Assembly: GCA_019321725.1 (NCBI GenBank)
Contig: CM033108.1
Span: 20,411,799-20,475,798 of the forward strand
DNA: 64,000 nt
From: Paulownia fortunei
Lineage: Eukaryota; Streptophyta; Magnoliopsida; Lamiales; Paulowniaceae
Reading direction: 5' to 3'
The notes below the pieces were generated by a model, which was given only the letters and a program-made list of their open reading frames with translations, was not told the origin of the DNA and searched no databases. This document shows, one piece after another, positions 27,822-56,023 of this stretch (position 1 is the first letter of the stretch; each line of letters starts with the position of its first letter). A program made the position numbers and the translations under genes.

Positions 27822-30636
27822 TGTGATACCCAAATCTCTCATAACTCACTTGGCTAATGTGATTCATGCATTACATACTACTTATATGCTAATTTGCATT
27901 AACATTTACATGGCATCTTATATAGCATTCTTAATCGTTACACCTCTAATGCTATCACATGATATAAGTGGTTGAAATCTTACAACCTAATTAAGAAATT
28001 CTATATTTAAATAAGAAAAAAAATAGATTGGTCGATACATTAGATATTCATAGGTTATATGTTATAATTTTGAAAATATTAAAGGTGTTACTAGTAAGTT
28101 TATATGATTCGATTTAATTAGATCAAGGTGTTTTAAAAGTATACATCCATAAATTAACATACATGGAATATTGAACATGATATAATGTGATTTAAGTATT
28201 ATAATACAAGTTCCATATGTGCATATTATTTTAGAAATGAAAACTAGACAATCATTTAAGAATTGAATGTCAATCAATTTGGAGATCGAATGAACGGATA
28301 TAGGAATTACATATGGAAATGAATGGTGACTAAGATAGGTTGCAACCAAATAAGAATATATGAGACACACAAGATTAGGGCTCCAAGATAAGGGAGAAAA
28401 TAAGATTATACCATTACATGTCACCTCAAGCTTTGCCACCTCATACTTTCTTATTTAGCTTAAGCTAACATCTCAAACTAACACCTCAAACCCTTCACCC
28501 TTAAGCCACGACCAGACCTTCATTTTAGCCATTTTCATCTTCCAAACACACACCTTAAGGTATCCAAGTGCTACAAATTGATTCCAAGTTCAAATAAAAG
28601 CAAGAAAAGCAAAGGAGAAGTGATTACCATCAAGTTTAACCTCAAAATCTACATAAGTAACACTTATCTACGATTTTGCCTTTGGTTTTTATATTATTAT
28701 GAATGGTTTTATTGTTTAATAATCTTTCAATATCCCTTATAACAGTGTTAAGAAGTTTTTAGTTAGACTTTGGTACGCAAAGAAAGGGTTTTTGATGACA
28801 AACACTTAATAGGAAATACTTGTGGCATAAACTGTCACCCTCCTATTTTCGTGTGTTTTAGGCTTCCAAAGTGTATGGTATGTTGAATAAAACCTATAAT
28901 TATTATCATATACATGTTTATATATGGGTTAAGAGTATTGGAATAAATTTTCATCTGTTAGAAATTGAAATAGGGCATGATATTGAAGAGATGCTCAAAA
29001 TTGTCACCATCAAATTTCAGATTCTGTCCTATATGAAGTGGACTAGTTTTACAGTATTAAATTCCTTAGTTTTGGAAGGATATGACCTTGTTGTCTCTTT
29101 TTATATATTATATAAGTGTGGTGAAAATTTGGGAGTGATTGAATATACTTAAAAGTGCCAAAACCATTAATATCATGAAGTGCGTAAAACTATCACGGTA
29201 GGAAAAATCTATTTCAGTATGTTGTGAAAGGAGCTAAACTTGGGAAGCTATATCCGTGATTTTAGCCATTCTATGACATGGTTACATTGTTTTTTATGTT
29301 AGCTAAGTGTGATAAAAATTTGAGAGTGAATGAATATATCTAAGGGTGTCAAAATCATCATATAAATTAATGTGGCAGCAAGAAAATGTGAAGTGGTGAA
29401 TTTATCCCATTTAGTTCATTAACATATTCCAGCATAGATGTGGTGCATTTGATCCCTAACATTTAGGAAAATATTGTAAGATTTATAATACATCAATTAA
29501 GTGAGGTTAGTATATATTTAAGATGTGGAACAAAGGTACGTAGAAGGTTGTATTCGATTATAGTTTATAAGTGGTAAAGTTGTTTAGTTAAATTGAGATT
29601 CAAGATCTTTATACTATATTAGGTATAATGAACTTGTTAATTGAGGATGGTGATTGATATCTTGTATTTTTACAGATTGTTTCATATCTGGGGTTGGGGA
29701 GTAATACTTAAAAAACCTATAAGTAACACATAATCGATCAAAGGTAAGTAAAGATTCATTTGCAACTACAATGCATAGACATAGTAAATGTGTGATTTAT
29801 ATGTAATACCATAGATCATATATGCATAGCAGAGGGCATGCATTACTGTCATTCATGTCCATTGAGCATACATACAAGGGCATTGGCATATGCATGCATC
29901 ATATACAAACATTATGATAAATCTTGCATTGCACAGCATGGGTCTAAGAAAGGAAAATATTTTACTGATCACTACTAGTGCACCAAAGCATGCATGAATT
30001 TGCATGGTTGTATGCATGGATTTGCAGGTTTGCGTGTATGGATTTGCATGTGTACGAGTGTGCATGGATTTGCATGCTTTTATGATATTTGGCCGTTGGA
30101 TTATGACGATGTACACAGCTCTTTTCTGGTGCATGGGATAGTAGCATTGGTCAGGGGCCCAAGAAAGAAATGATCTTGAGAGAAATATTTTGATGCATGG
30201 AATTGCATTGTGGGCATAGCATTTTGAGATGCATGACTTGATATTGTGGATTATTCTTTAACATGCATAATCTTTACTTGCTAAGTGTTAGCTCATATAG
30301 TTTATGCATTATAGGTGAGTCTGGTGATACTTAATACCATGGATTTAGTGAGCAAGTTGTTGGGGTTCCTACAAGTTTTGAAGATCAGTGTACATGGATG
30401 ACGACCTGTTGGGTTGTGTTGTGGGCATATTCTAATTTTTATATTTATTATTATTATGTAAATTGCTGACTATATATAAATAGTGATTTTTCTATATACA
30501 GAGTTATATGTGAGAAAACAATTTACTGTTTCTCAAAGTGCTACATTTGACAAAAAAAAAATATATATATATATATAAACACATATGCACACACATGTGC
30601 TACCTTGTCAAAATTATTGTTATTTCAATATCTATA
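27822..30636 (+). repeat. LTR A of the nested Gypsy element
   Basis: Starts TGTGATACCC and ends in the phrase ATATCTATA. A block at about 29975-30085 has CATGCA/TGCATGGATTTGCATG motifs repeated every 20 to 25 bases. The minus-strand frames at 28062-28439 and 29853-30134 have counterparts in LTR B (34275-34514, 48108-48389) simply because the LTRs are duplicates; I do not call them genes. Confidence 0.85.
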
Positions 30637-34034: not shown

Positions 34035-35535
34035 TGTGATACCCGAACCTCTCACAACTCACTTGACTAATGTGATTCATACATTACATGCTACTTATAT
34101 GCTAATTTGCATTAATATTGACATGGCATCTTTATATAGCATTCTTAATCGTTAGACCTCTAACGCTATCACATGATATAAGTGGTTGTGATCTTACAAC
34201 CTAATTAAGAAATTCTATATTTAATAAGAAAAATAATAGATTGGTCGATATATTGGATATTCATAGGTTATATGTTATAATTTTGAAAATATTAAAGGTG
34301 TTACTAGTAAGTTTATATGATTCGATTTAATTAGATCGAGGTGTTTTAAAAGTATACATCCATGGATTAACATACTTGGGATATTGAACATGATATAATG
34401 TGATTTAAGTGTCATAATACAAGGTCCATATGTGAATATTATTTTAGAAATGCAAACTAAACAATCATTTAAAAATCGAATGCCAATCAATTTGGAGATC
34501 AAATGAACGGACATAGGAATTACCTATGGGGATGAATGGTGACTAAGATAGGTTGCAACCAAATAAGAATATATGAGACATACAAGATTAGGATTGCAGG
34601 ATAAGGGAGAAAATTAGATTATACCATTACATGCCATCTCAAGCTTTGCCACCTCATGCTTTCTTATTAAGGTTAAGCTAACACCTCAAACCCTTCACCC
34701 TTAAGCCATGACCAGACCTTCATTTTAGCTATTTTCATCTTTCAAACACACACCTTAAGGTATCCAAGTGCTCTAAATTGATTCCAAGTTGAAATAAAAG
34801 CAAGAAAAGCAAAGGAGAAGAGATTACCATCAAGTTTAACTTCAAAATCTGCATAGGTAACACTTATCTATGGTTTTGTCTTTGGTTTTCATATTATTAT
34901 GAATGGTTTTATTTTTTAATAAGATTTAAATATCTTTATAAAAGTGTTAGAAAGTTTTTAGTTAGACTTTGGTGCACAAAGAAAGGGTTTTTTATGACAA
35001 ACACTTAATAGAAAATACTTGAGGCAGAAATTGTCACCCTACTGTTTTTTTGTGTTTTAGGCTTCCAAAGTGTATGGTATATTGAATAAAACCTGTAATT
35101 ATCATTATATACATGTTTATATATGGGTTAAGAGTATTGGAATAAATTTTCATCGGTTAGAAATTGAAATAAGGCATGATATTGAAGAGTTGCTCAAAAC
35201 TGTCAGCATCGAATTTCAGATTTTGTCCTATGTGAAGTGAACTAGTTTTATAGTAGTAAATTCCTTTGTTTTGGGAAGGATATGACCTTGTTGTCTCTTT
35301 TTATATGTTATATAAGTGTGATGAAAATTTGGGAGTGATTGAATATACTTAAGGGTGCCAAAACTATTAATGTTATGAAGTACATAAAACTATTACGGTA
35401 GGAAAAATCTGTTTCAGTATGCTGTGAAAGGAGCTAAACTTGGGAAGCTATATCCATGAGTTTTAGCCATTCTATGATATGGATACATTGTTTTTTATGT
35501 TAGCTAAGTGTGATAAAAATTTGGGAGTGAATGAA
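34035..35535 (+). repeat. LTR B of nested Gypsy, left portion
   Basis: Aligns with LTR A from TGTGATACCC (27822) to about 29330, then is interrupted by the Athila-like element. It ends with the ATGAA target-site copy (35531-35535). Confidence 0.85.
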
Positions 35536-37154
35536 TGATAAGTGCATATTTTGACATATTTTTATATCAAATCCTTTATACTTTTCTTACTTTATTCTTG
35601 TTAATATTTTTATTTTATTAATGTTTTGTGTTAGGGAATAAATGGAAGCATGTTTTCAAACTTGTGCAGTTTTTATAATTTGAGCATAACTTCATGATCA
35701 AAAGCTCTATGGACCTGAAGCTTGTTTCATTTGAAAGCCAAGAGATAGAGGTACAACTTTTATGTTGGAGGATCAGCCCAATTCAGTCTTGATAATAGCA
35801 TAAAATTCGTCCAAGTAATTACACAAAATGGATCACCAAAATTCAGATTAGAGTTCAGCCCAGTATTGACTTATTTTACCAATTCGGTTATATATCTTGA
35901 GCCCAAATTTATTTTGGTCTGAAATTCGGATATGTTATATCCAAGAGGTAAATAAACAAGTTTACTGAAGACAAGATGGTGTGAAAATGTGTCGAAATGG
36001 TAAAACCATAGGCTGCAAGTTGCTGCTGATGTTACAGGGCGGCTCTTGGACATGACTCGGTAATTTGACCATATCTCCTTCATCCGATCACCAAATTTGA
36101 TAAAAGATATATGAAAATATATCAGTGTTGAAAGATATACAATTTTTATTCTTTACGTATCTTCAAACTCTGGCTGTATCTGACCAAAAAATATAATTTA
36201 ATTCAGTGGATGAGAAATTTGTGTAACAACTTATCAACTCTTGGCAACTAGCATACCACTTGATTAACCCCTCCATTATTTGTTTGGCCTCTAGCTTACT
36301 CCAAGTACTATAAATAGGCCATGTATTCAGCTTGTAAGAGGGGGGAGGGGGGTAGAGGGTTTCTTTAGGCTAAGTTATCTAGTTTGTATGTTTTCTAGTA
36401 TTGTAAGTTTTCTAGTAGTAATAGAAATGCATTCTCTAGTTTCTCTTATATTTTTAGTCTTTGTTACTTTTATTATGTCTTTCTAAATTTCATTTTACTG
36501 AGGAAAAAGGGTGAATCTCTTGATGGAGGAAGAGAAATGGTTATAAGGGTAGAAATTGTTTAAGTATGTTGTATTATTATTATTATTTTTGATCTAAACC
36601 CTACTTATTTTTGTGGTGATTCTTGATTTATGTATCTCCAATGGCACAACAAATACTTGGGTTCATTTAGCTTATTGTACGGTTTTACCCCACCGACTGC
36701 TAATGTGAAACCTTGATTTATTGTTGACGAAGGAGTATATAAATGCTTGATCCCATAAATAAGTGTTGGCGTTAAGAGATAATTTGCAATAGTAAGACAA
36801 TATCATGATTACCTTATTGCATGAGTTACTTGATAATATCTTCCCATTGGAACCTTCATTATGTATGGATTCCAATTGTGGCAATTAATAGAGGTAAAAA
36901 GAATAAATAACCATTTATCTATCCAAAACTCAAGAGTGGATCCCTAATCCTCAGTACTTTTATTACTTCGGTTTTTTCTTTAGCTACATCATACATTAAT
37001 TGTTCATATATTTTTGATTCACATAAATTCCATCTTTTTATAAATATAAACTTGAATTCTTCAAACAACTTCCCTGTGGATCGACCTCGGACTCACGAGA
37101 AATTTATTACTTACTACAACCTGCACTTGGGTTTGCAACCTTAAAGTTGTAGCA
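35536..37154 (+). repeat. 5' LTR of the Athila-like element
   Basis: Runs from TGATAAGTGC to GTTGTAGCA. A TATA box (CTATAAATAGG) lies at 36308-36318, followed within 20 to 30 bases by a G-rich run (GAGGGGGGAGGGGGG) in the presumed early transcript. It matches 45972-47585 with only scattered differences. Confidence 0.92.
36308..36318 (+). promoter_or_regulatory. TATA box of Athila-like LTR
   Basis: CTATAAATAGG, repeated in the 3' LTR near 46745. The position, about 770 bases into the LTR, fits the U3/R border. Confidence 0.65.
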
Positions 37155-37160
37155 AGTTTT

Positions 37161-37178
37161 TGGCGCCGTTGCCGGGGA
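37161..37178 (+). other. Primer binding site of the Athila-like element
   Basis: TGGCGCCGTTGCCGGGGA, seven bases after the 5' LTR. This 18-base site is a known hallmark of Athila-type Gypsy elements (Asp-tRNA type). Confidence 0.9.
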
Positions 37179-37252
37179 AGGCAAGGTAAGTATTTAGCTT
37201 TGTTAATATTTTTCCTTTGTAAATATAGTTTGTTTATTTTCTTTATGGATAT

Positions 37253-39033
37253 ATGGTTATATGGTATCGTAGTCATAATTCTCGACGTTTAGTAAGAAAT
37301 AATTTCAAAACTTTGTTTGGAAATTTGTTTGAATCATCTCCACACACTTCCACCATGGCTGAAAATGAAAGTGTCCAGGATGAAAATGAGAATCAACAGG
37401 TGCGTACCATGCGTTATTACTTGCAACCTCCTCGAAATTCTTCTCCTTCTTGTTTCATTTTTCCTCTAAATGCAAATAATTTTCGATTCAAGTCAGGTAT
37501 GATCCCTTTACTTCCTAATTTCCATGGTTTAGACTCTAAAAGTCCTTACTTGCATTTAAAAGAATTTGATGAAGTATGTGCCACTTTTGATGATCAAACT
37601 TGCACAAATGAGATTGTTAAGCTCAAATTATTTCCTTTCTCTTTAAAAGATAAAGCAAAAAATTGGCTTAATTCTTTAAAACCTAGGTCAATTGGTACTT
37701 GGCGAGAAATGCAAGCTGAATTCTTGAAAAAATTCTTTCCAACTCATAAAACTAATGCTTTGAAAAGACAAATTCAAAATTTTTCTCAAAATTCGAATGA
37801 AGTTTTCTTTCAATGTTGGGAAAGATTTAAAGATTTGTTGAATTCATGCCCACATCATGGTTTTGAAAAATGGCGCTTAATTAGTTTCTGTTATGAAGGT
37901 TTAACTCCTGAAACAAAATAATTTGTTGAAACAATGTGTAATGGTGAGTTTCTTGATAAGGAACTTGATGAAGCCCTAGAATACCTAGATTATTTGGCAG
38001 AACACTCTCAATCATGGCATAGTGTTAATTCTTCCGAAGGTTCTATTAGATCTAATCTTGCTAATAGTAATAAAGGAAAATATTACCTTAGTCAAGAAGA
38101 TGATCTAAATGCTAGACTTGCTAGTTTAACAAGAAAAGTTGAAGCCATGGAACTTAAGAAAGTAAAGGAAATCAAATCTGTGCAAGAGGAAGAAGTTTGT
38201 AGCAATTGTGAACTTTTGGGGCACTCCACCAATGAATGTCCAAACCTTCTAGTACAAGCAAATTTTATGAACACATTCAAAAAGCCTTTCCATTCTCCAT
38301 ATTCTGAAACTTACAATCCACAATAGAGAAATCATCCCAATTTCAGTTAGCGAGATGATAACCGTGCCCAACCACCGCATTCACAAAAATCACAAAACTT
38401 TCATTCTTATCCACCTCCACATACAAAATCCATTGAGGAGACTTTGCAAGCATTTATGCATGAACAAACAAACATCAATAATCAAACTTCACAAGCAATC
38501 AATGAGATTAGAAACACACTTTCAACACTGACAACTTCTTTGCGTACTCATGAAAAAGGTAAATTCCTGCTCAACCTCAACCTAATCCTTCTACTCAGTG
38601 TAATGTTTCTTCTTCAGGTGAAAATGCAGTCAAGGAGGCTAATTCAGTTACAACTCTTCGGAATGGAAAAGTTGTTGACAAGACTATTCATCCCAAGGTG
38701 AAAGTTTCTAATTCACCTCCAGAAATGAAAAATGGAAATAGTCTTGACGATGAAGGTAAGTTTGAAGAAGGTAAGTGTGAAAATGAAGAAAAAGAAAAAT
38801 ATTTACCTCCAGCACCCTTTTCTCAAAGATTGCAAGCAACTCAGAAATTGAACTCAAATGCTGAAATTTTTGAAATTTTTAAACAAGTCAAGATTAATAT
38901 TCCATTATTGGATGCAATCAAGCAAGTTCCACCTTATGCCAAATTTTTGAAAGATTTGTGTACAATCAAAAGAAAACATCATGTACAAAAGAAGGCATTT
39001 TTAACTGAAAGTGTTAGTTCAATCATTCAATAA
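37253..39033 (+). pseudogene. Athila-like Gag polyprotein
   Basis: The gag domain is in the first piece (37253-37921): FHGLDSKSPYLHLKEFDEVC, then LKDKAKNWLNSLKPRSIGTW and the basic EFLKKFFPTHKT. TAA at 37919-37921 stands where a Gln codon is expected, and the same frame resumes at 37934. A CCHC zinc knuckle (CSNCELLGHSTNEC) lies at about 38198-38240. A TAG at 38324-38326 and a frameshift near 38570 break the downstream linker, which continues to 39033 (QRLQATQKLNSNAEIFEIFK). The likely start is an ATG near 37355 in the same frame (MAENESVQDE). Gag would assemble the particle and bind genomic RNA. Confidence 0.88.
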
Positions 39034-39825
39034 TTCACTCCACCCAAGTACAAAGATCCAGGTTGTCCAACCATTTCATGTATCATAGGAAACACTAGAA
39101 TAGAGCGTGCTTTGCTTGATCTTGTGCTAGTAATAAATCTTCTACCTTTCTCAGTTTATGAACAGTTAGGTTTGGGAGAACTTAAAACAACTTCTGTTGT
39201 ACTCCAATTAGCTGACCGTTCGATTAAAGTTCCAAAGAGAATAGTAGAAGATTGTGTTGGTACAAATTGATAAGTTTTACTTTCTAGTTGATTTCATTGT
39301 TTTGGACACAGAGCCTGTTGCACAAACACACACACAATTCCTATCATTTTGGGTCGTCCTTTTCTTGCAACTTCAAATGCTTTGATCAATTGTAGAAATG
39401 GTATTTTGAAGTTATCATTTGGAAATATGACTTTGGAACTAAATGTGTTTAATGTTTGTATGCAACCTGCAGAAGATGTCGAAGTACATGAAGTGGATTC
39501 AATTGAGGAACTTGTTCATGAATACTTTACTACTACTAACTCTTCAGATTCTTTGGAGACTTGTTTTGAAAGTGAAAGTATTTATAAAAAGGAACACACT
39601 AATACTATCTTTGAATTTTTGCAGGTACAAGAAAAATATTTTTGGAAGCCAAGGTTCGAAGAACTTTCATCATCAACAGTAAAATCTATTCCATCAAGTA
39701 TTAAAGCTCCCGTGGTTGAATTGAAACCTTTGCCAGTTAATTTGAAATACTCTTTCTTGGGTGAAAATGAAACTTTTCCAGTAATAATTTCTTCAAACTC
39801 GATGCATATCAAGAAGGTAAGTTGA
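39034..39825 (+). pseudogene. Athila-like protease region
   Basis: After the gag stop at 39031 the same frame continues through YKDPGCPTISCIIGN and ALLDLVLVINLLPFSVY. The last phrase corresponds to the usual ALLDLGASVN active site, but the Gly-Ala after the Asp is changed, so the protease is probably inactive. A frameshift near 39270 follows, and the frame from 39349 reads GRPFLATSNALINCRNGILK, the conserved end of the retropepsin fold, and then the linker to reverse transcriptase. Confidence 0.8.
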
Positions 39826-41106
39826 TCGAAACTCTGAAAATGCATAAGAATGCTTTAGGATGGACCATTGCTGATATTAAAGGTATTAATCCTTTCATTT
39901 GCACACATAACATCTATTTAGAGAAAAATGCTAAACCATCTAGAGAAATGCAACGAAGGCTAAATCCTAATATGAAAGAAGTAGTAAGAAATGAAGTCAT
40001 TAAACTCTTAGATAATGGAATCATTTATTCTATTTCTGATAGCAAATGGGTAAGTCCGACTCAAGTTGTACCTAAGAAATCAGGAGTTACTGTAGTCAAG
40101 AATGAGAATGATGAATTAATTCCAACCAGGACTGTTACTGGTTGGTGAATGTGCATTGACTATTAGAAAACTCAACTCAGTTACTAGAAAATATCATTTT
40201 CCATTATCTTTCATGGATCAAATTTTAGAAAGAGTTGCGGGCCATAAATTTTATTGCTTTTTAGATGGATATTCTGGGTATAATCAAATTGTACTTGCAC
40301 TTGAAGATCAAGAGAAAACAACTTTTACATGTCCTTTTGGTACTTTTGCATATCGAAGAATGCCTTTTGGATTATGTAATGCACCAGCTACATTCCAACG
40401 ATGCATGCTTAGTATTTTTAGTGACATGGTTGAACGTTTTCTTGAAGTCTTCATGGATGATTTTTCTGTTTTTGGTAATTCATTTGATGATTGCTTATCT
40501 AATTTAGAAAAGGTTTTGATCAGGTGTGAAGAAAAGAATCTTGTGCTCAATTGGGAGAAATGTCACTTCATGGTAACAACTGGTATTGTTCTTGGACACA
40601 TTATATCATCAGAAGGTATTGAGGTTGATAAATCTAAAATTGAGTTAATTGCCAATTTGCCAACACCAAAGACTGTGAAGGAGATTAGATCATTTTTAGG
40701 ACATGCTGGTTTTTATAGAAAATTTATCAAAGATTTTAGTATAATATCTAAACCTTTGTGTAATCTTCTAACAAAAGACACTATTTTTGAATGGACTGAA
40801 AACTGTGAAAATGCTTTTGTTAAGCTTAAAAGCATGCTTACGTCTGCTCCAATCATGCAGCCTCCAGATTGGACTTTAAATTTTGAAATAATGTGTGATA
40901 CTAGTGATTATGCTGTTGTAGCTGTCTTGGGACAAAGAAAAGATAAAAAATCATATGTTATTTACTATGCAAGTAAAACTTTAAATGGTGCTCAATTGAT
41001 TTATACAACAACTGAAAAAGAATTACTTGCTATAGTTTTTGCATTGGATAAATTTTGATCTTATCTTGTTGGCTCACCAATTGTTGTTTTCAGTGATCAT
41101 GCACCT
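39822..41106 (+). pseudogene. Athila-like reverse transcriptase and RNase H
   Basis: The piece 39822-40148 has the RT N-terminus (GWTIADIKGINPFICTHNI and KWVSPTQVVPKKSG). It ends at a TGA in the GW-R motif, and a one-base insertion shortly after shifts the frame. The piece 40156-41058 carries the palm: DQILERVAGHKFYCFLDGYS, TFQRCMLSIFSDMVE and the catalytic box VFMDDFSVFG, then the link SFLGHAGFYRKFIKDFS and the RNase H start with CDTSDYAVVAVLGQR. TGA at 41056-41058, in KF-R-SYLVGS, interrupts RNase H. Both palm aspartates are present. Confidence 0.9.
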
Positions 41107-42612
41107 TTGAAATATCTTTTGTCAAAAAAAGATGCTAAACCAAGACTGATTAGGTGGATTCTCTTACTCCAGGAATTTAATATTACTATTCGAGATAAAA
41201 AGGGAGTAGAGAATGTAGTGGCTGATCATTTGTCGAGACTTGTTTGTGATGATTCATTTCAAACCACACCTATTAATGACACTTTTCCTGATGAACAATT
41301 ATTTAACGTTTCTATTTTACCTTGGTTTGCTGACATTGTTAATTTTCTTGTAATAGGAAAGATGCCATCACATTGGAACTCTCAAGATAAAAAGAAGTTT
41401 TTGACTGAGGTTAAAAAATTTTATTGGGATGATCCATACCTATTCAAATATTGTCCGGATCAAATCTTTCGAAGATGTGTGCCTGACAATGAGATAGGTA
41501 ATATTGTCAAATTTTGTCATTCAGAAGCATGTGGTGGTCATTTTTCTGTAAAGAAAACTAATGCAAAAATCTTGCAATGTGGATTTTATTGGCCAACTCT
41601 TTTCAAAGATACTTACACTTTCTGCAAAAGTTGTGAAAATTGTCAAAAGTTAGGGTCCCTTTCAAAAAGAAATATGATGCCCCTACACCCTATTCTAGTG
41701 ATTGAAATCTTTGACTGTTGGGGTATTGATTTTATGGGGCCATTTCCATTATCATTTGGTTTTCTTTACATATTGGTTGCCATAGATTATGTTTCAAAAT
41801 GGATCGAGGCAATTCCTTGTCGAAACAATGATCACAAAATAGTGATAAAATTTTTGAAAGAAAATATTTTAAGTCGATTTGGAATTCCTAGATCTATTAT
41901 CAGTGATGAGGGAAAACATCTTTGTAACAAAATTTTCGAAACTTTAATGAAGAAATATGGAATCATACATAAAGTTGCAACCCCTTATCACCCTCAGACA
42001 AATGGACAAGTTGAACTTGCAAATAGGGAGATAAAACAAATTTTGGAGAAAATAGTTAACCCAAACCGTAAAAATTGGTCTCTTAGACTTACCGATACAC
42101 TTTGGGCATATAGAACTGCTTTCAAAACATCATTAGGCATGTCTCCTTATAGGATAGTTTATGGAAAACCTTGTCATTTACCTGTTGAACTTGAACATAA
42201 AGCTTATTGGACAATCAAAATATTTAACTTCAACCTTGATGAATCTTCAAAATTGCACAAATTACAAATCAATGAACTTGAAGAACTGAGAAATGATGCA
42301 TATGAGAATTCTAAAATTTATAAAGCAAGAATCAAAGATTTTCATGATAATAAAATTTCAAGAAAAATATTTGAGGTTGGTCAAAAGGTTTTTCTTTATA
42401 ATTCTCGATTGCATTTGTTTCCTGGAAAATTGAGATCAAGGTGGAGTGGTCCTTTTGTTGTAAAAAAAGTATATCCTTATGGGGCGATTGACATTGAAAA
42501 TCCTAGAAATGGTAACATATTCAAAGTAAATGGACAAAGAGTTAAACCATTTCTAGAAAATCAATTTTCACAAGAGGAAATTCTTTTTCTTTCTAACCCT
42601 TGTTATGATTAG
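41107..42612 (+). CDS. Athila-like RNase H end and integrase
   Basis: An open frame of 501 codons in the same frame as the piece ending at 41058. It begins in the RNase H tail ([20 protein letters not shown], then VVADHLSRL). The integrase zinc-binding domain follows, with an HSEACGGHF motif and CKSCENC for the cysteines. The catalytic core has [10 protein letters not shown] for the first Asp, ISDEGKHLC for the second, and [16 protein letters not shown] for the Glu. The C-terminal end ([15 protein letters not shown]) has the SH3-like fold typical of Gypsy integrases. There is no chromodomain, as in Athila and related non-chromoviruses. This part looks intact, but it has no start of its own: it would be made as part of the interrupted polyprotein. 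Confidence 0.9.
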
Positions 42613-42813
42613 TGTTGTATATATTTTTTTTATCTGACATTATTTTTTCTTCTCTTCTTCTTCTTTTATTTTTTATTTTTTCTTTTCCCGATTAAATGGC
42701 GGATAACGGTACTCCGTGGCTATAAAAGTCGGACTTGTCAGTTTCCCAAACAACTGAAATCTTTGTACAAATTTTTTTTGTTTTTCTCATTCTCTTTTCT
42801 TGTTATTTTCAAA
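42613..42813 (+). promoter_or_regulatory. Possible internal promoter with TATA box
   Basis: After the pol stop there is a CT/T-rich tract, then a GC-richer patch with GGCTATAAAAG (TATAAAA at 42721-42727). The next ATG in the ORF frame follows at 42814, 87 bases downstream. The spacing resembles a plant promoter and leader, and could start a subgenomic transcript for the two downstream ORFs. This is inference from sequence only. Confidence 0.45.
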
Positions 42814-43371
42814 ATGGGTGACATATTTCTAACTCTCAAGAAGTGATTTCATTTTCTTCCTAAAAATGCAATTTTGAAAATTTATAAAATAAGGATTGAA
42901 AGATTGAGGATGCTTATGCACAAGGGCATTCCGGAGGACATACGATGGTTAATTGAAGCAAAGGTAAGAGCAGGTGAGTTTTCACATGAGTTTCCAGATT
43001 TGCTTACTAGATACATGTCTGGTTTTGGTAAAAGCACATATTCAAAAAAACGAAGGGCGAAAAAAATGAAAGTTTGTCATATTTGTACTAGATGGACTTG
43101 CAACACAAAGTGTCGTTCTTTAGGAATGGTCTCTAAAAATCGAGAAGATAAACTTAAATTCATTATGGATGGACTGAGTAAGGAGTCTTTAGATCACATT
43201 ATATTGACTCTTGAGACGCATTCATGTGGATTGGTACAACGTGCAATTCTTGATTTATGGGATCGTTTTCGAAATGAATATGAGCTTTATAGTCTTGGGA
43301 ATCTAACATTAAAAGATCCTGTTTGCCAGTTTATAAGAAAACTGGATGGGAAGCATATCCTCGACCCATAG
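42814..43371 (+). pseudogene. Unknown basic Cys-rich ORF downstream of pol
   Basis: An ATG at 42814 (MGDIFLTLKK) is in frame with the long open part but meets a TGA at 42844-42846; the frame is then open to 43371. The uninterrupted length would be 185 codons. The protein is basic, with a nuclear-signal-like KKRRAKKMK directly before a cysteine cluster CHICTRWTCNTKC (spacing C-x2-C-x4-C-x3-C), which suggests a small metal-binding, nucleic-acid-binding module. An alpha-helical Leu-rich C-terminal half follows (HIILTLETHSCGLVQRAI). The layout recalls the small cysteine-rich nucleic-acid-binding proteins of some plant RNA viruses, but that is only an analogy. It lies in the place where Athila elements carry an env-like ORF. 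Confidence 0.6.
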
Positions 43372-43609
43372 AGGGCGTTTAAGCCATTACTGGACGTAAA
43401 ATCAAAGGAAGATGTGAGCCACAATCACAACTACATGTACATACACGTGGTAGTAGGTAATTTTTAAATTTCGTATGTGTCCTTATTTTCAACCTTTTTG
43501 ACAAAAAAAAAGACATGCAATAAATGTATTCCCTGTTCACACCTCAATAAATATCACCGTACTCACTCTATTTTTGCACAACTTATTTTCAAAAAAAAAA
43601 GAAAAAAAA
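43372..43609 (+). other. Spacer between the Cys-rich ORF and LOG
   Basis: Non-coding, 238 bases, ending with two A-rich runs just before the LOG start codon. It has no clear TATA box of its own; CAATAAATATC near 43550 is a weak candidate. Confidence 0.5.
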
Positions 43610-44263
43610 ATGGAAGTTTCTTCAACTCGCAAATTTAATTCCATTTATGTTTTTTGTGGATCCAATCTAGGAAAAAATGGTGAGTTTATAGGGGCAGCCA
43701 ATAATCTTGGTAGAACTTTAGCAGAAAGAAAAATTCATTTAGTGTATGGGGGAGGCAGTTTGGGGTTAATGGGGAGTGTTGCCATTTCTGCTTATGTAGG
43801 AGGTGTCAAAGTTCTGGGAGTTATCCCAAAATGTTTAACAGTACAGAATATCACAAGTATGACCATTGGAGATGAGCTGAAAGTGTCACACATTCAGGAC
43901 AGAATGCCTAATATGTTAAACAATGCGGATGCATTCATCATTCTACCTGGCGGTTTTGGTACACTGGAAGAATTATTCCAAATTGTCTCTTGGGCACAAC
44001 TCAACATTCACCAAAAACCTATAAGTATTCTTAATGTTAATGGTTTTTATGATGGTTTGCTATCTTTTGTAGATCATGCTGCGAAAAAAGGGTTTATTTC
44101 AACTTCTGCGAGAAGAATCATCATTTCTGCTCCAACACCTGACCAGCTGATTGATCAACTTCTAGCATATGTGCCAAAACCTGATCCAGTCTTGGCCAAT
44201 GTGGATTGGTCCAATAGGAACAATGGTCGAAAATACAAATTGAAATTGACTCTCAGTCTGTGA
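43610..44263 (+). CDS. LOG: LOG cytokinin riboside 5'-monophosphate phosphoribohydrolase
   Basis: An intact 217-codon, intronless ORF. LOG enzymes cut cytokinin nucleotides directly to the active free base plus ribose 5-phosphate. The Rossmann-like fold motifs are in order: FCGSNLGK (residues 15-22), the nucleotide-binding YGGGSLGLMG (46-55), VLGVIPK (68-74), and the signature PGGFGTLEE (113-121). Arg98 and Glu121, the catalytic pair in this numbering, are both present, though the usual MHQRKAEM context around the Arg reads IQDRMPNM. The length is normal for plant LOGs (about 210-220). An upstream in-frame ATG at 43574 would add 12 Lys-rich residues; the ATG at 43610 matches family starts better. 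Host LOG genes have several introns, so this is probably a captured cDNA. It sits between pol and the 3' LTR, in sense orientation, inside LTR borders. Confidence 0.93.
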   Translation: MEVSSTRKFNSIYVFCGSNLGKNGEFIGAANNLGRTLAERKIHLVYGGGSLGLMGSVAISAYVGGVKVLGVIPKCLTVQNITSMTIGDELKVSHIQDRMPNMLNNADAFIILPGGFGTLEELFQIVSWAQLNIHQKPISILNVNGFYDGLLSFVDHAAKKGFISTSARRIIISAPTPDQLIDQLLAYVPKPDPVLANVDWSNRNNGRKYKLKLTLSL

Positions 44264-45971
44264 TACTTATTGTTAATGATTTTATCTAATAGTATGTGTG
44301 TTTTTTTTATTGTTTCAGCTTTATTAGCCGCATTTCAGGTGATATCTTTCAAACTTTACTTTCCTATCTATTTTTGACATTGGGAACAATGTCTCGATTA
44401 GGTTGGGGGGAGGGATAATTGATATCATGACTTGTATATTCAATGTGTGTTTTTTTTAGTATTTAAAAAAAAAAAAAAATAAAATCAAGTGTGTTTTTTT
44501 TGCTGGGTCCGTTGAAAGCATGAAAAAAAAGGTGGCTGAGTAAAGGGTAATTGTAACACTCTTGAGACGCATCCCTATTTTTTGCATAATATGGCAGGTT
44601 TGTAAAGTTTTTAACAAGTGTTTGTGAATTACCAATATTTTTTTTGAGTTGTATAGGTTATTCCAACTTCAATGATTAAAATTAAGCATGAATAATATGG
44701 TTTAATTGATGATGGGTGTTGTTTTGGACTTTGATGTTGTTATTTGGTTAATATATTTTTGCGATAATTATACTCAAATTTTATTTTGCACAAATAGTTA
44801 TGTTATTTAGTGTGAAGACAATCATGTCAAAATATATAGTTCTTATGCCCTTACTCTAATCATCACTTGAATCTTCAACATGTAGGGGTTGAGTATTAGA
44901 ACTTTTACTTTTGGTCTGTCGAGGTGAACGACTGATAGTGCACCACTAGAAAAATGATTAAGGCATTAGGCTTTCTAGCACCATTTCTAAATCAGCTTAT
45001 TCCCTATATGATATTTAAAGAAAACATCCCCCTAGTAAACCACTTTGAGCCTTACAATAAATAAATATATTTTTTTTGTAACCATATCTTTTTACCTAGT
45101 CTAAATACACTATTATCCAACCCTTATTCTAAAAATGATTGGAGTTTAAGAGACATTCAATTGAAAGCTTGGACTTACAAAAGAAATTTAGGTTGGGATA
45201 GAAGATAAGTGTGGGGGAGTTTCTCTAGTTAAAAAAAAAAGAAAAAAAAATAATATAAAAAAAAAGTTGCAACTAAAAATGAGATGTTGCAAGATGAATA
45301 AGAGGGGTCCAATTCAATAACAATAGACTCCAGTGTGAAATTTGTGGAGTTGGAGAATTTTTCATCGATAAATTTTATGTCTCTGATTCCATGAAGTTTT
45401 TAGAACCTTTGTTGCATCCTATCCTTTTATTTTTTAGCTACATCACCACCCTTTGGCCCCATTACAACCTTTGTTAAAGATACTTTGATTTCGTGTGGTG
45501 CCTTCAGTGTAGTGGAGATTTGCACCAAAGGAAGAGCCTATGATGTTTAATTTTTCTGTTAGAGATTGGGTGATGGTTTTGTAAGGTTTTATGAGAATTC
45601 ACTTATTTGAAACATGCATAGTTTCATCACTATTGACATTAACTATCCACACACACACTTGAGTATGATTATTGTGGAAATGTATTGATTTTTGAATAAC
45701 TAAGAGTTAAACTCAACACTTGTTTGATTTTATTTCCATATTACTTTGTTGCTTCATGAGAATAAAAGTTGGAAGATAGTTATTATAGGTGTTTGTAGGT
45801 ATCACTGCTGGAAACCTTCACGAGACTATAACTCGTCCTCTATGGGCCACCTAGGGGTTTAAAGGCTTGTTGCATATGCTAAATGCAATCGTGATTTCCT
45901 ACGAAAGTGGATTAGTTTATGTTTGTTTTAAGCTTGCTCGAGGACAAGCAAGGGTTAAGTGTGGGGGAATT
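44264..45971 (+). other. 3' untranslated region with polypurine motifs
   Basis: No coding frame over 1.7 kb. G-rich motifs are spaced through it: GGTTGGGGGGAGGG near 44401, GTGTGGGGGAGTTTC near 45209 and GTGTGGGGGAATTT at 45959-45972, the last immediately before the 3' LTR. The phrase CTCGAGGACAAGCAAGGG just before it is familiar from other plant Athila-like 3' ends. Confidence 0.65.
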
Positions 45972-47585
45972 TTATAAGTGCATATTTTGACATATTTTTA
46001 TATCAAATCCTTTATACTTTTCTTGCTTTATTCTTGTTAATATTTTTGTTTTATTAATGTTTTGTGTTAGGGAATAAATGGAAGCATATTTTCAGACTTG
46101 TGTAGTTTTTGTAATTTGAGCATAACTTTATGATCAAAAGCTCTATGGACCTGAAGCTTGTTTCATTTGAAAGCCAAGAGATAGAGGTACAACTTTTATG
46201 TTGGAGGATCAGCCCAATTCAGTCTTGATGATAGCAGAAAATTCGTCCAAGTAATTACACAAAATGGATCACCAAAATTCAGATTAGAGTTCAGCCCAGT
46301 ATTGACTTATTTTACCAATTCGGTTATATATCTTGAGCCCAAATTTATTTTGGTTTGAAATTCGGATATGTTATACCCAAGAGGTAAATAAACAAGTTTA
46401 CTGAAGACAAGATGGTGTGAAAATGTGTCGAAAAGGTAAAATCATAGGCTGCAAGTTGCTGCTGATGTTACAGGGCGGCTCTTGGACATGACTCGGTAAT
46501 TTGACCATATCTCCTTCATCCGATCACCAAATTTGACAAAAGATATATGAAAATATATCAGCGTTGAAAGATATACAATTTTTATTCTTTACGTATCTTC
46601 AAACTGTGGCTGTATCTGACCAAAAAATGTAATTCAATTCAGTGGATGAGAAATTTGTGTAACAACTTATCAACTCTTGGCAACTAGCATACCACTTGAT
46701 TAACCTCTCCATTATTTGTTTGGCCTCTAGCTTACTCCAAGTACTATAAATAGGCCATGTATTCAGCTTGTAAGAGGGGGGGGTATAGGGTTTCTTTAGG
46801 CTAAGTTATCTAGTTTGTATGTTTTCTAGTATTGTAAGTTTTCTAGTAGTAATAGAAATGCATTCTCTAGTTTCTCTTATATTTTTAGTCTTTGTTACTT
46901 TTATTATGTCTTTCTAAATTTCATTTTACTGAGGAAAAAGGGTGAATCTCTTGATGGAGGAAGAGAAATGGTTATAAGGGTAGAAATTGTTTAAGTATGT
47001 TGTATTATTATTATTATTTTTGATCTAAACCCTACTTATTTTTGTGGTGATTCTTGATTTATGTATCTCCAATGGCACAACAAATACTTGGGTTCATTTA
47101 GCTTATTGTACGGTTTTACCCCACCGACTGCTAATGTGAAACCTTGATTTGTTGTTGACGAAGGAGTATATAAATGCTTGATCCCATAAATAAGTGTTGG
47201 CGTTAAGAGATAATTTGCAATAGTAAGACAATATCATGATTACCTTATTGCATGAGTTACTTGATAATATCTTCCCATTGGAACCTTCATTATGTATGGA
47301 TTCCAATTGTGGCAATTAATAGAGGTAAAAAGAATAAATAACCATTTATCTATCCAAAACTCAAGAGTGGATCTCTAATCCTCAGTACTTTTATTACTTC
47401 GGTTTTTTCTTTAGCTACATCATACATTAATTGTTCATATATTTTTGATTCACATAAACTCCATCTTTTTATAAATATAAACTTGAATTCTTCAAACAAC
47501 TTCCCTGTGGATCGACCTCGGACTCACGAGAAATTTATTACTTACTACAACCTGCACTTGGGTTTGCAACCTTAAAGTTGTAGCA
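45972..47585 (+). repeat. 3' LTR of the Athila-like element
   Basis: Matches 35536-37154 with few differences; the first bases read TT instead of TG. It ends GTTGTAGCA, followed by the ATGAA target-site copy. Confidence 0.92.
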
Positions 47586-47590
47586 ATGAA

Positions 47591-48885
47591 TATGTCTAAG
47601 GGTGTCAAAATCATCATGCAAATTAATGTGGCAGCAAGAAAATGTGAAGTGGTGAATTTATCCTATTTGATTTATTAATATGTTCCAGCATAGATGTGGT
47701 GCATTTGATCCCCAACATTTAGGAAAATATTGTAAGATTTATAATACATTAATTAAGTAAGGTTGTATACATTTAAGATGTGGAATAAAGGTACGTAAAA
47801 GGTTGTATTCGATTATAGTTTCTAAGTGGTAAGGTTGTTTAGTAAAATTGAGATTCAAGATCTTTATACTATATTAGGTATAATGAACTTGTTAATTAAG
47901 GATGGTGATTGATATCTTATATTTTTATAAATTATTTTACATCAAGGGTTGGGGAGTAATACTTAAGAAACCTAGAAGTAACACACAACCGATCAAAAGT
48001 AAGTAAATATTCATTTGCAACTACAATACATAGACATAGTAAATGTGTGATTTATATGTATTACCATTGATCATATATGCATAGCAGAGGGCATGCATTA
48101 CTGTCATTCATGTCCATTGAGCATACATATATGGGCATTGACACGTGCATGCATCATATACAAGTATTGTGATAAATCTTGCATTGCACGATATGATTCT
48201 CATAAAGGAAAATGTTTTACTGACCACTACTAGTGCACCAAAGCATTCATAGATTTGCATGGTTGTATGCATGGATTTATAGGTTCGCGTGTATGGATTT
48301 GCATTCGTACGAGTGTGCATGGATTTGCTTGCTTTTATGATATTTGGCCATTGGATTATGGCAATGTGCAGAGCTCTTTTCTGGTGCATGGGATAGTAGC
48401 ATTGGTCAGGGGCCCAATAAAGAAATGATTTTGAGAGAAATGTTTCGATGCATGGAATTGCATTGTGGGCATAGCATTTTGATATGTATGACTTGATATT
48501 GTGGATTATTTTTTGACATGCATATTCTTTACTTGCTAAGAGTTAGCTCATATAGTTTATGCATTGTAGATGAGTTTGGTGAACTTGATACTATGGACTT
48601 ACTGAGCAAACTGCTGGGGTTCCTACAGGTTCTGGGGATCAGTGTACATGGATGACGACCTGTTGGGTTGTGTTATGGGCATATTCTAATTTTTACATTC
48701 ATTATTATTATGTAAATTACTGACTATATATAAATAGTGATTTTTCTATATACAGGGTTATATGTGAGAAAATACTTTACTGTTTCTCAAAGTGCTACAT
48801 TTGACAAAAGTAAATATATATATATATATACACATGCACACACATGTGCTACCCTGTCAAAATTATTGTTATTTCAATATCTATA
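47591..48885 (+). repeat. LTR B of nested Gypsy, right portion
   Basis: Continues the alignment with LTR A exactly where 35535 broke off (ATGTCTAAGGGTGTCAAAAT here against ATATCTAAGGGTGTCAAAAT in LTR A). It ends ATATCTATA, followed by CCAAT. Confidence 0.88.
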
Positions 48886-53719: not shown

Positions 53720-55790
53720 AGTGCAACTTGCTAAGCTAACAAATGGATTAAAAGATTTTTAAAACATGATTTTACTGAAAAATCAAAGGCTCATTGTTCG
53801 ATGAAGGAAAATTGAGCGATCAATGCAAGCATTTGCCTTGTCAAAATCATAATGTATACACCATCCTTGAATACAAACTTCCTACTAAAGATCCAACATC
53901 TAAGGAGGTTTTTTCTTTCCCAAAATTGAAAAGCAAAGACAAATAATATTGATAGCAAGCAACCCATAAAAAATCTTGCACAATTGAATCTTTTGGGAAT
54001 CATCTCGTTCAAAAGGCCTAGTGGAATATTCTTTTTTGAAATTTTCTGCTAGAATGGTTCTTTCCAAAGGAGTCACTAGCCATTGAAATAAACCTTGTTT
54101 TAAAGTTGTCATCTCCTTATAGAGTTAGGGTTTTTTAATGAGCTGTTTCGAGTGTTGATGGTCCAAGGTACTTTTGGGCCAATATTGCCATGTTTCAAAG
54201 GCTCTCGAGGCGCTCCTTGTTCCATGAGTTTTGATGGAGGTAAGGGATCAAGTGCAACTAGCTCAAGGAAGTTAACGAATTGATTTAAGGGTTTCTAAAA
54301 TATGACCTTACTGAAAAATCAAACGCTCACTTTTCGTGTCAAGGAAAATTAAGCGATCAATGAAAGCTTCTACCTACTCAAAATCAGAGTCTTCACTCCA
54401 TCCCTGCATGCAAACTTCCTTCTATAGATCCAACATCTAAGATTCTCTTTCCCAAAAATTAAAAAGTAAAGACAAAATAATGCTTATAGCGAGCTTTAGT
54501 CCAATTCCTTAGATGACTAAAAGTCTTGCATTGATTGAATCTTTTTAAAATCATCTTTAAAAATGCTTAGTGGAAGATCTTTTTTTGGTAATTTTCTACT
54601 ATGGGTTCTTTTCAAAGGAGTCACTAGCCATTGAAATAAACCATTTTAAAAGCTATCATTTCCTTATAGAGTTACAGTGTTTTTGATGAGGGGTTGCGAG
54701 TGTTAGTGGTCCAACGACTTTTGGCCTAATATTGCCATATTACAAAGGCTCTCTACGTGCTCATTGTTCCACGAGTTTTGATGTAGGTGAGGGATCAAGT
54801 GCAACTAGCTCAAGGAAGCTAACGAATGGATTAAAGGGTTTTAAAACATGATACTAATAAATCAAAAAATCACGAATTCGGTCAAGGAAAACTTTGCGAT
54901 CAATGCAAGTGTCTGTCTAATCAAATTCAGAGTGATTACACCAGCCCTGCATACAAACTTCCCACTAAAGGTCCAACATCTAAGATGGTTTTTTCTTTCC
55001 CAGAATTGAAAAGCAAACACAAACTAATGCTTACAATAAGCTACCCATACATCAAATCTTTGCTTTGCGTTCTTTTAGTCCAATTCCTTTAAATACAAAA
55101 ATTGAATTTTTTTAGAATCATCTCCTTCATAAGGCTTAGTGGAAGATTTTTTTGTTGTGATTTTCTACTAAAAGGGTTCTTTTCAAAGAAGTCCCTGGCC
55201 ATTGAAATAAACCACTTTTTAAAGCTATCATCACCTTAGAGAGAGTTAGGGTTTTTTTAGGTAAGGTGTTATGAGTGTTGGTGGTCCAAGGTACTTTTTC
55301 GCCCAACATTACCATGTCAGATTGGCTCTCAAGGTGCTTGGTTTTTTACAAGTTTTAATGGAGGTGGGGGATCTAGTGCAACTAGCTCAAAGAAGCTAAC
55401 GAACAGATTAAAGGGTTTCTGTAACATGAAAAATCAAAGTCTCACTTGTCCGATTAAGGAAAAATGAGCTACCTAGTTAAAATCATAGTGTTTACACCAT
55501 CCCGGCATACAAACTTCCTACTAAAGATCCAAAATCTAAGAAGGTTTTTTCTTTCCCTAAATTGAAAAACGAAAACAAAATAATGCTTATTGCAAGCTAC
55601 CCATACATCTTTGCTTTACTTCCTTTAGTCCAATTCCTTTTTACTTCAAATAATCTTGTATTGATTGAATCTTTTAAGAATCATCTCCTTCAAAAGGCTC
55701 AGTGGAAGATTCTCTTTTGTAATTTTCTACTGAAAGGCTTCTTTCAAAAGGAGTCACTAGCCATTGAAAAAAACCCCACATTTTAAAGCT
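53720..55790 (+). repeat. 0.55-kb tandem array, units 1 (rest) to 4
   Basis: Unit starts (GAGTTAGGG-like) lie near 54121, 54668 and 55244; the interrupted first unit is 26893-27025 plus 53720-54120. Shared landmarks per unit include GGATCAAGTGCAACTAGCTC, AAAAATCAAA followed by TCACTT, CCAACATCTAAGA and GGAGTCACTAGCCATTGAAA. The landmark AGTGCAAC occurs at 54251, 54798 and 55375, giving periods of 547 and 577. Minus-strand translation of parts of the units looks protein-like (LELVALDP) but is broken in every unit; I do not recognise it. Confidence 0.85.
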
Positions 55791-56023
55791 ATAACTTTTG
55801 GTTCTTCAAATCCTGTGCATGGGGAAAGCACAAGTTGTTTGCAAGCTCTCTAACTAAAGTGATGCTATAAGTAATCACAATCTACAAACAGGATATATAA
55901 GTTTATTGAACAGTGTTAAAACAATACCATTATGTGTTATTGGTGTAGAGGCCAGAGAAAATGCAGTTGCCTTTTCATGAAAAGTGAAGCTTGCGTTTTC
56001 ATACTTTTCAATACATCACCCCG
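55791..56023. other. Non-coding flank of the array
   Basis: No gene. Array similarity ends near 55790. Confidence 0.4.

What the first reader, a model, noticed from the sequence alone, without database searches (positions are those of the whole stretch)
43610..44263. Intact LOG cytokinin-activating gene captured inside an Athila-like retrotransposon
The sequence shows an open, intronless LOG ORF of normal length with PGGFGTLEE, Arg98 and Glu121, lying in sense between pol and the 3' LTR, well within LTR and target-duplication borders. Known: plant LOG genes have introns and release active cytokinin. Inference: a spliced LOG mRNA was captured, and the ORF has stayed open while gag-pol of the same copy has gained stops, so it may be under selection or recently acquired. 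A mobile element that carries a hormone-activating enzyme would be an unusual host-manipulating cargo.
Basis: partly seen in the sequence, partly recalled or inferred. Interest (0 to 1): 0.95.

Follow-up and report, generated by a model that had tools for sequence, protein, structure and literature searches.

The report
Cytokinin-activating gene in plant retrotransposon family
A family of plant jumping genes has long carried its own version of the enzyme that switches on the growth hormone cytokinin, next to a gene resembling a plant-virus protein, which suggests that it may steer its host's cells.

Summary
An intact, intronless 217-codon LOG gene lies in sense after integrase in an Athila-type Ty3/gypsy element (35536-47585; LTR K2P 0.015) of a genome that is very probably Paulownia fortunei. 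It is no one-off: of 39 copies picked by non-coding DNA, 36 carry LOG there. The sampled element-type LOGs, from rosids and asterids, form one clade apart from the sampled host LOGs (100/99), so capture looks old. LOG domains in Ty3/gypsy elements are already in print for Citrus and Populus (PMC9289625). Two features seem new. (1) A C-terminal LxLxL (EAR-type) tail: 87 of 121 element-type proteins, 0 of 120 listed host LOGs. (2) The gene before LOG encodes a zinc-finger protein matching Pfam's carlavirus nucleic-acid-binding families (14 and 13 of 17); one such viral protein is a weak silencing suppressor and induces hyperplasia. Raw dN/dS fails its wrong-frame control. A private-versus-shared test gives modest support for purifying selection (OR 2.37, p=0.010, 87 copies; p=0.055 in the unbiased set alone). 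Cytokinin activation, TOPLESS binding and benefit to the element are inferences.

The parts
35531..35535 (.). Target-site duplication, left (ATGAA)
35536..37154 (+). 5' LTR
   Evidence: K2P 0.0151 to the 3' LTR
37155..37180 (+). Primer-binding site region; complementary to the 3' end of tRNA-Asp (recalled, no tRNA compared)
   Evidence: sequence
37253..38326 (+). gag, with a stop at 37919-37921
   Evidence: PF03732 5.7e-26 in the first piece; second piece only a weak zinc-knuckle match (0.018)
40123..41055 (+). Reverse transcriptase and first part of RNase H; stop at 41056
   Evidence: PF00078 5.2e-25, PF17919 9.4e-28
41059..42612 (+). End of RNase H, integrase
   Evidence: PF17917 2.7e-8, PF17921 9.5e-13, PF00665 2.6e-16; no chromodomain or second RNase H in the pieces scanned
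42690..42775 (+). Non-coding stretch before the zinc-finger gene, similar to the same place in L029; the window also has TATAAAAG
   Evidence: by eye, two sequences
42814..43371 (+). Zinc-finger gene like carlavirus nucleic-acid-binding protein; this copy has a premature stop at 42844-42846
43610..44263 (+). LOG (cytokinin riboside 5'-monophosphate phosphoribohydrolase type) ORF, 217 aa, intact
44246..44260 (+). Codons of the C-terminal LTLSL, an LxLxL (EAR-type) motif
45972..47585 (+). 3' LTR (begins TT, not TG)
47586..47590 (.). Target-site duplication, right (ATGAA)

Best explanation
SHOWN: this is one copy of an Athila-type LTR retrotransposon family whose internal region after pol holds two accessory genes in sense, a zinc-finger gene resembling carlavirus nucleic-acid-binding proteins and then an intronless LOG gene. 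LOG is a standing gene of the family, not a passenger of one copy. The sampled element-type LOGs are one clade, mostly with the PGGxGTxxE active site and, in most of them, a C-terminal LxLxL tail that the sampled host LOGs lack. INFERRED: an ancestor captured a spliced plant LOG mRNA, gained the tail, and the gene has since been kept because it helps the element. In cells where the element is expressed, the enzyme would release free cytokinin from its nucleotide precursor and push those cells towards division or meristem identity, where new insertions can be inherited. The LxLxL tail would bring the enzyme into contact with TOPLESS-type corepressors in the nucleus and damp host responses. The zinc-finger protein would weaken RNA silencing or act as a transcription factor. 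Together they would form a small host-reprogramming cassette.
For: Copies: 36 of 39 chosen by 3' non-coding DNA hold LOG. In 54 of 60 copies chosen from the LOG list, integrase, zinc finger and LOG are collinear with 206-253 bp between the last two. Enzyme: PDB matches to plant LOGs; AlphaFold2 model pLDDT 82.5, Foldseek best match 2a33_B with TM 0.94 by target and rmsd 1.3; PGGxGTxxE in 40 of 45 representatives (103 of 121 listed; host 108 of 120), Arg98 in 40 of the 41 representatives where it could be read. Clade: 100/99 with the tail columns left out. Tail: 87 of 121 against 0 of 120 listed host LOGs; LxLxL elsewhere in the same proteins at 3 of 25168 positions; 33 of 45 representatives end in LxLxL and one in DLNLTP; the state needs 4 changes on the tail-free tree, which fits one early gain and later losses; the model gives the tail low confidence and no secondary structure. 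LxLxL and DLNxxP are the two EAR consensus forms (abstract starts of PMC6283911 and PMC9956375). Zinc finger: Carla_C4 in 14 and Viral_NABP in 13 of 17, best 1.1e-8. Chrysanthemum virus B CRP is described as a weak silencing suppressor and a transcription factor inducing hyperplasia (PMC12172455, passages). Selection: N/S 82/21 among private against 56/34 among shared variants in 87 distinct copies, OR 2.37, p=0.010; wrong frames OR 1.18 (p=0.72) and 1.51 (p=0.30).
Against: No expression, enzyme or binding data. Pairwise dN/dS of LOG (0.52) does not differ clearly from its wrong frames (0.59, 0.62). In the sample chosen without regard to LOG the selection test is only p=0.055. In the first set wrong frames also reached p=0.035 (LOG +2, OR 2.17) and p=0.023 (integrase +1, OR 1.98), so the test is not clean. 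The Orobanche lineage has lost the strict LxLxL form (DAFLSL and the like), and two Reevesia-type representatives have lost one leucine. The window's own tail (RKYKLKLTLSL) does not meet the basic-cluster pattern that 28 of 45 representatives meet. That relatives in other species lie in elements rests on copy number, on contigs of equal length and on print, not on DNA read here. Host LOGs sampled are LOG3-like plus one LOG8-type, so the donor and the origin of the tail are not settled; some of the 120 host models have odd C-termini. The zinc-finger gene shows no selection signal within Paulownia, and L029 has it without LOG in the roughly 1 kb that follows.
Confidence: 0.55

Rival explanations
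1. Neutral passenger: LOG was captured once and is copied along with the element without benefit; intact copies are simply young.
For: Most Paulownia copies are broken: 7 of 33 full-length copies in the unbiased sample are open. Naive dN/dS is close to wrong-frame values. Unbiased-sample test p=0.055.
Against: Between plant families the listed proteins are 57-68% identical with the active site mostly kept and the length nearly constant (the list is ranked by similarity); a free passenger would hardly keep this. Shared variants carry relatively fewer amino-acid changes than private ones, and 1 of 91 shared variants in the merged set is a stop change.
Confidence: 0.15
2. Tail-first function: the LOG fold serves mainly as a stable carrier of an EAR motif that recruits or titrates TOPLESS; cytokinin activation is secondary or lost.
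For: The alternating leucines are kept while the residues between vary: -5 L 36, -3 L 39, -1 L 42 of 43. The tail has low model confidence and no secondary structure. One relative ends in the other EAR form (P0031).
Against: Catalytic residues are mostly kept as well. The Orobanche clade keeps the enzyme but not the strict motif.
Confidence: 0.15
3. The tail is not an EAR motif but serves oligomer contacts, stability or another short-motif partner.
For: EAR calls by pattern alone have false positives; no binding was tested.
Against: A terminal leucine alternation, often after a basic cluster, is the usual look of C-terminal EAR motifs (recalled); 0 of 120 listed host LOGs have it.
Confidence: 0.2
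4. First reader's recent one-off capture of a spliced host LOG mRNA by this element.
For: The ORF is intronless; no intronless canonical-type LOG was among the 150 scored matches of each of two canonical queries in this genome (best identity 52%).
Against: LOG is present across the family at the same place and the clade is wide; the window LOG is only 47% identical to a canonical asterid LOG.
Confidence: 0.01

Closest known systems
YgdH/LOG-domain Ty3/gypsy elements of Citrus and Populus (Alvarado-Marchena et al. 2022, PMC9289625: passages and section 12 read; cites Steinbauerova et al. 2011, not held, abstract recalled: two Athila-like elements with similarity to LOGL4)
   Same: LOG-type domain as an extra domain of plant Ty3/gypsy elements; perhaps the same lineage (not compared here)
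   Different: Section 12 does not speak of the LxLxL tail, the zinc-finger neighbour, one clade across rosids and asterids, or selection; no Lamiales are named there for this domain
Plant LOG family (At2g37210 and At5g11950 solved)
   Same: Fold, PGGxGTxxE, Arg98, length
   Different: Separate clade, intronless, in a mobile element, C-terminal LxLxL
Orchid Ty3/gypsy elements with an m6A RNA demethylase (PMC9289625, passages)
   Same: A host enzyme captured by a plant Ty3/gypsy element and kept over many copies
   Different: That enzyme acts on RNA and was shown active; here the substrate would be a hormone precursor and nothing was assayed
Carlavirus/allexivirus-type cysteine-rich nucleic-acid-binding proteins (Pfam PF01623, PF05515)
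   Same: Basic stretch followed by a cysteine finger; curated Pfam cut-off passed by the window protein
   Different: The element protein is mostly about 182 aa with its own conserved C-terminal half, and is encoded by a retrotransposon
Pathogen effectors that bind TOPLESS, HaRxL21 and Jsi1 (listing with abstract starts; details recalled)
   Same: A non-host protein with an EAR motif directed at TOPLESS
   Different: From an oomycete and a fungus; here encoded by a genomic parasite, and TOPLESS binding untested

Membership tests
LOG (type I, TIGR00730/PF03641) | Family profile above curated cut-off | tested here: met
   128.8 against 27 bits; TIGR00730 169 against 96.35; the equivalog NF058542 is below its cut-off, 112.9 against 300
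LOG (type I, TIGR00730/PF03641) | PGGxGTxxE and catalytic Arg/Glu | tested here: met
LOG (type I, TIGR00730/PF03641) | Fold | tested here: met
   2a33_B, TM 0.94 by target
LOG (type I, TIGR00730/PF03641) | Phosphoribohydrolase activity on cytokinin monophosphates | not testable with these tools
   needs assay
Athila lineage of plant Ty3/gypsy | RT-RNase H-INT order, no chromodomain | tested here: met
   pieces of the + strand of 120 codons or more
Athila lineage of plant Ty3/gypsy | No second (archaeal-type) RNase H, which marks Tat (PMC6317226, passages) | tested here: met
   only PF17917/PF17919 in the pieces scanned; shorter broken pieces were not scanned
Athila lineage of plant Ty3/gypsy | Place in an RT/INT tree with named Athila elements | not tested
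   no named reference elements were at hand
Athila lineage of plant Ty3/gypsy | Athila ORF-1 domain (PF03078): not defining, present in only 16% of Athila elements (PMC6317226, passages) | tested here: not met
   not among the matches
Carlavirus-type nucleic-acid-binding protein | Pfam profile above curated cut-off | tested here: met
   window 24.9 against 20.9 bits; 14 and 13 of 17 relatives at E<=0.001
Carlavirus-type nucleic-acid-binding protein | Same fold as the viral proteins | not tested
   structure job never accepted
EAR-motif repressor | LxLxL or DLNxxP | tested here: met
EAR-motif repressor | Leucine-dependent corepressor binding and repression | not testable with these tools
   needs assay

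The most novel reading that the evidence does not exclude
A plant retrotransposon lineage has carried, since before or near the rosid-asterid split, a host-reprogramming cassette: a silencing-suppressor or transcription-factor-like zinc finger shared with plant RNA viruses, and a cytokinin-releasing enzyme that a new EAR tail links to TOPLESS. It behaves like a pathogen's effector set working from inside the genome, so as to enlarge the dividing cell lines that pass on new copies.
Probability: 0.25. Interest if true: 0.9.

Novelty: new variant of a known kind. Interest (0 to 1): 0.62.

Why it matters
Whether genomic parasites manipulate host development, rather than only evade silencing, is open. 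An old, widespread hormone-activating enzyme with a likely corepressor-binding tail, next to a gene shared with RNA viruses, makes this directly testable with a simple enzyme assay and a yeast two-hybrid test. It also warns annotators: multi-copy 'LOG' genes in Orobanche, Reevesia, Rehmannia and Paulownia gene sets are probably element genes, not host gene expansions.

Tried and rejected
Raw pairwise dN/dS: LOG 0.52, but wrong frames 0.59 and 0.62; zinc finger 0.585 against 0.45 and 0.58; integrase 0.68 against 0.46 and 0.62. Rejected as evidence; the fall of the ratio with dS in the bins is also built in by binning on dS. Replaced by the private-versus-shared count, which has its own limits: copies are related, tests are uncorrected, wrong frames reached p=0.035 and p=0.023, and 60 of the copies were picked by me down the LOG-ranked list of 150, mostly stop-free rows (50 of 58 ungapped ones).

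Viral-contig scans: zinc-finger alignment, 16 stretches matched and none was a relative; LOG alignment, 28 loci at 25-52% identity, none near and none opened. Genome-contig scan with the zinc finger: one locus, L029, read as a plant contig in a bacterial bin, with integrase and zinc finger but no LOG in the last ~1 kb. RNA folding of the integrase/zinc-finger spacer: not clearly better than shuffles, z -1.20 and -0.45. Host LOG exon search to show introns directly: not completed. Second structure job (zinc finger): never accepted. Own-genome search with the zinc-finger protein: one try, busy, not repeated.

Dropped before the tree: 4 of the 121 element-type proteins outside 195-232 aa (P0014, P0015, P0044, P0056); the rest were collapsed at 88% identity to 45. 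Two representatives with aberrant ends (P0047, P0079) were left out of the tail counts of 43 and of the state count.

Considered and dropped: assembly artefact (many copies); bacterial or fungal origin (best matches are plant LOGs).

Full report
What is there. The ORF at 43610-44263 is real, open and intronless. It belongs to the LOG family by Pfam, NCBIfam and solved structures, and an AlphaFold2 model (19-row alignment, pLDDT 82.5) overlays Arabidopsis At2g37210 with rmsd 1.3 over 178 alignment columns. The element around it runs from 35536 to 47585: LTRs of 1619 and 1614 bp with K2P 0.0151 (about 0.6-1.1 My at recalled rates), target duplication ATGAA, and a primer-binding site that by recall fits tRNA-Asp. 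It sits inside a repeat of another element: 27822-30636 recurs as 34035-35540 plus 47585-48885 at about 91.5%. Pfam finds gag, RT, RNase H and integrase, and neither a chromodomain nor a second RNase H in the pieces scanned. That fits Athila and speaks against Tat and chromoviruses by the criteria of PMC6317226 (passages), but no tree with named elements was made.

The host. The search placed the window in a 509-Mb assembly. Three of its contig lengths (27090522, 24664501, 25024) equal those of Paulownia fortunei proteins P0002-P0004, so the plant is very probably P. fortunei.

LOG is a gene of the family. The own-genome search scored 150 of 4312 candidates, and all 150 matched. I fetched 60 of these. 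In 54 of 60, integrase, zinc-finger gene and LOG lie in that order on one strand, with 206-253 bp between the last two; in the other 6 no integrase match was found in the stretch fetched, and 4 of them lacked the zinc-finger match too. Because that list was ranked by LOG, I drew a second set by 3' non-coding DNA (40 scored of 2393 candidates, one being the window) and read the LOG place of the other 39: 36 carry LOG, 33 of them over the full length, and 7 of those 33 have ATG, no stop and no frameshift, one of the 7 read only to base 649 of 651.

Selection. Pairwise dN/dS is useless here: LOG 0.52 in frame but 0.59 and 0.62 out of frame. I take this to mean that most changes are post-insertion decay with a strong transition bias. 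Comparing private with shared (three or more copies) variants keeps the mutation spectrum. In 61 copies N/S is 81/19 private and 51/32 shared (OR 2.67, p=0.005). In the same call integrase (OR 0.54, p=0.07) and zinc finger (OR 0.81, p=0.67) show no such drop, but two wrong frames do (LOG +2 OR 2.17, p=0.035; integrase +1 OR 1.98, p=0.023). In the second set alone OR is 2.25, p=0.055; in 87 distinct copies merged OR is 2.37, p=0.010, wrong frames 1.18 and 1.51, p=0.72 and 0.30. Shared stop changes in the first set: LOG 1 of 84, integrase 7 of 83, zinc finger 4 of 47. I read this as modest support for purifying selection on LOG between rounds of copying, perhaps with pol supplied by other copies.

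Relatives elsewhere. The best 120 of 3514 homologues include high-copy sets: one 90% cluster of 244 member sequences in Orobanche hederae (P0083) and one of 328 in O. minor (P0111), and many loci named from different chromosomes of Reevesia pubescens, besides proteins of Rehmannia, Xanthoceras, Populus and Diplodiscus. LOG protein P0092 and zinc-finger protein P0128 both list 8723 bp as longest contig, and P0113 and P0167 both 2128 bp, as if on the same contigs (not verified; P0006/P0235 and P0013/P0174 also share short lengths, 1161 and 1386, and the last pair looks unrelated, so short coincidences mean little). Canonical LOGs, by contrast, are 74-98% identical to At2g37210 among the best 120 of 7992, Cryptomeria included. 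A tree of 45 element-type representatives, 20 LOG3-like host proteins, At5g11950 and two bacterial LOGs puts the element type in one clade: SH-aLRT 99, and 100/99 with the tail columns removed. Both sets were picked by similarity, and host paralogue sampling is narrow, so 'one capture' is the simplest reading, not proof. Orobanche gracilis and Diplodiscus have proteins of both types, on opposite sides of the split (P0048 and P0354; P0073 and P0323).

The tail. 87 of the 121 element-type proteins (window included) have LxLxL in the last 8 residues, against 0 of 120 host LOGs listed, some of which have odd C-termini; elsewhere in the element-type proteins the pattern occurs at 3 of 25168 positions. 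Of 45 representatives 33 end exactly in LxLxL; P0031 ends in DLNLTP, the other EAR form; seven of the Orobanche kind end in DAFLSL or similar; P0081 and P0086 have lost one leucine; two have aberrant ends. A basic cluster by pattern lies in the last 16 residues of 28 of 45 against 1 of 120; the window's own tail is basic but does not meet that pattern. The tail state needs 4 changes on the tail-free tree. In Paulownia 83 of 87 copies keep it. EAR consensus forms are taken from abstract starts; TOPLESS binding is untested.

The zinc-finger neighbour. Frame 42814-43371 has a premature stop at codon 11 in this copy. Its relatives are mostly about 182 aa (391 homologues, best 120 listed), with three invariant cysteines and a nearly invariant fourth after a basic stretch in 17 aligned. 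Carla_C4 matches 14 and Viral_NABP 13 of 17 members. PMC12172455 (passages) says that chrysanthemum virus B CRP is a weak silencing suppressor and a transcription factor that induces hyperplasia. The listings of searches showed no paper on such a gene in a retrotransposon; of the papers listed I opened only PMC12596083 (passages, unrelated) and PMC9289625. Direction of transfer between viruses and elements, or convergence of a short finger, cannot be told.

Prior print. PMC9289625 (passages and section 12) found the YgdH/LOG domain in Ty3/gypsy consensuses of two Citrus species, and in Populus without its filter, citing Steinbauerova et al. 2011 (not held). PMC7264820 (passages) does not mention LOG. 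The listings of searches showed no further paper on LOG in retrotransposons, and search 41 none on an EAR tail there; the other papers listed were not opened. Hence: known kind, new variant.

Mechanism. The steps shown are anatomy, family-wide presence, conserved active site and conserved tail. The steps inferred are enzyme activity, nuclear or TOPLESS contact, silencing suppression by the neighbour, and benefit to the element.

Noticed in passing
window 37755-37863, minus strand: Rfam snoR71 match (42.6 bits, cut-off 40) inside the gag region, antisense to it; possibly chance or a snoRNA-derived stretch.
   Followed up: no
window 42690-42775 and L029 1670-1745: Non-coding stretch between integrase and the zinc-finger gene looks much alike in window and L029 (by eye) and can form small hairpins, though folding is not clearly better than shuffles. 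The window also has TATAAAAG there, kept in 38 of the 40 copies whose form was shown, of 54 covered. Could be an internal promoter.
   Followed up: partly
window 43480-43519 and 43540-43589: Stretches just before the LOG start differ little among 60 copies (though parts of integrase differ as little), with AATAAATATC kept in all 51 copies whose form was shown, then an A-rich leader: possible LOG promoter and leader.
   Followed up: partly
L029 (contig DAIEQH010000041.1): A contig binned as Candidatus Nomurabacteria holds a Ty3/gypsy-type integrase and the zinc-finger gene: probably plant contamination in a bacterial bin.
   Followed up: partly
window 27822-48885: The LOG element is inserted into the second copy of a ~2.8-kb direct repeat (27822-30636 and 34035-48885) that looks like the LTR pair of another element with a short internal part.
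   Followed up: no
window 53733-55792: Tandem copies with a spacing of about 540-580 bp, 63-88% alike.
   Followed up: no
proteins P0014, P0015, P0044 (Xanthoceras sorbifolium): Gene models with two whole or partial LOG units in one protein, probably models fused over neighbouring copies.
   Followed up: no
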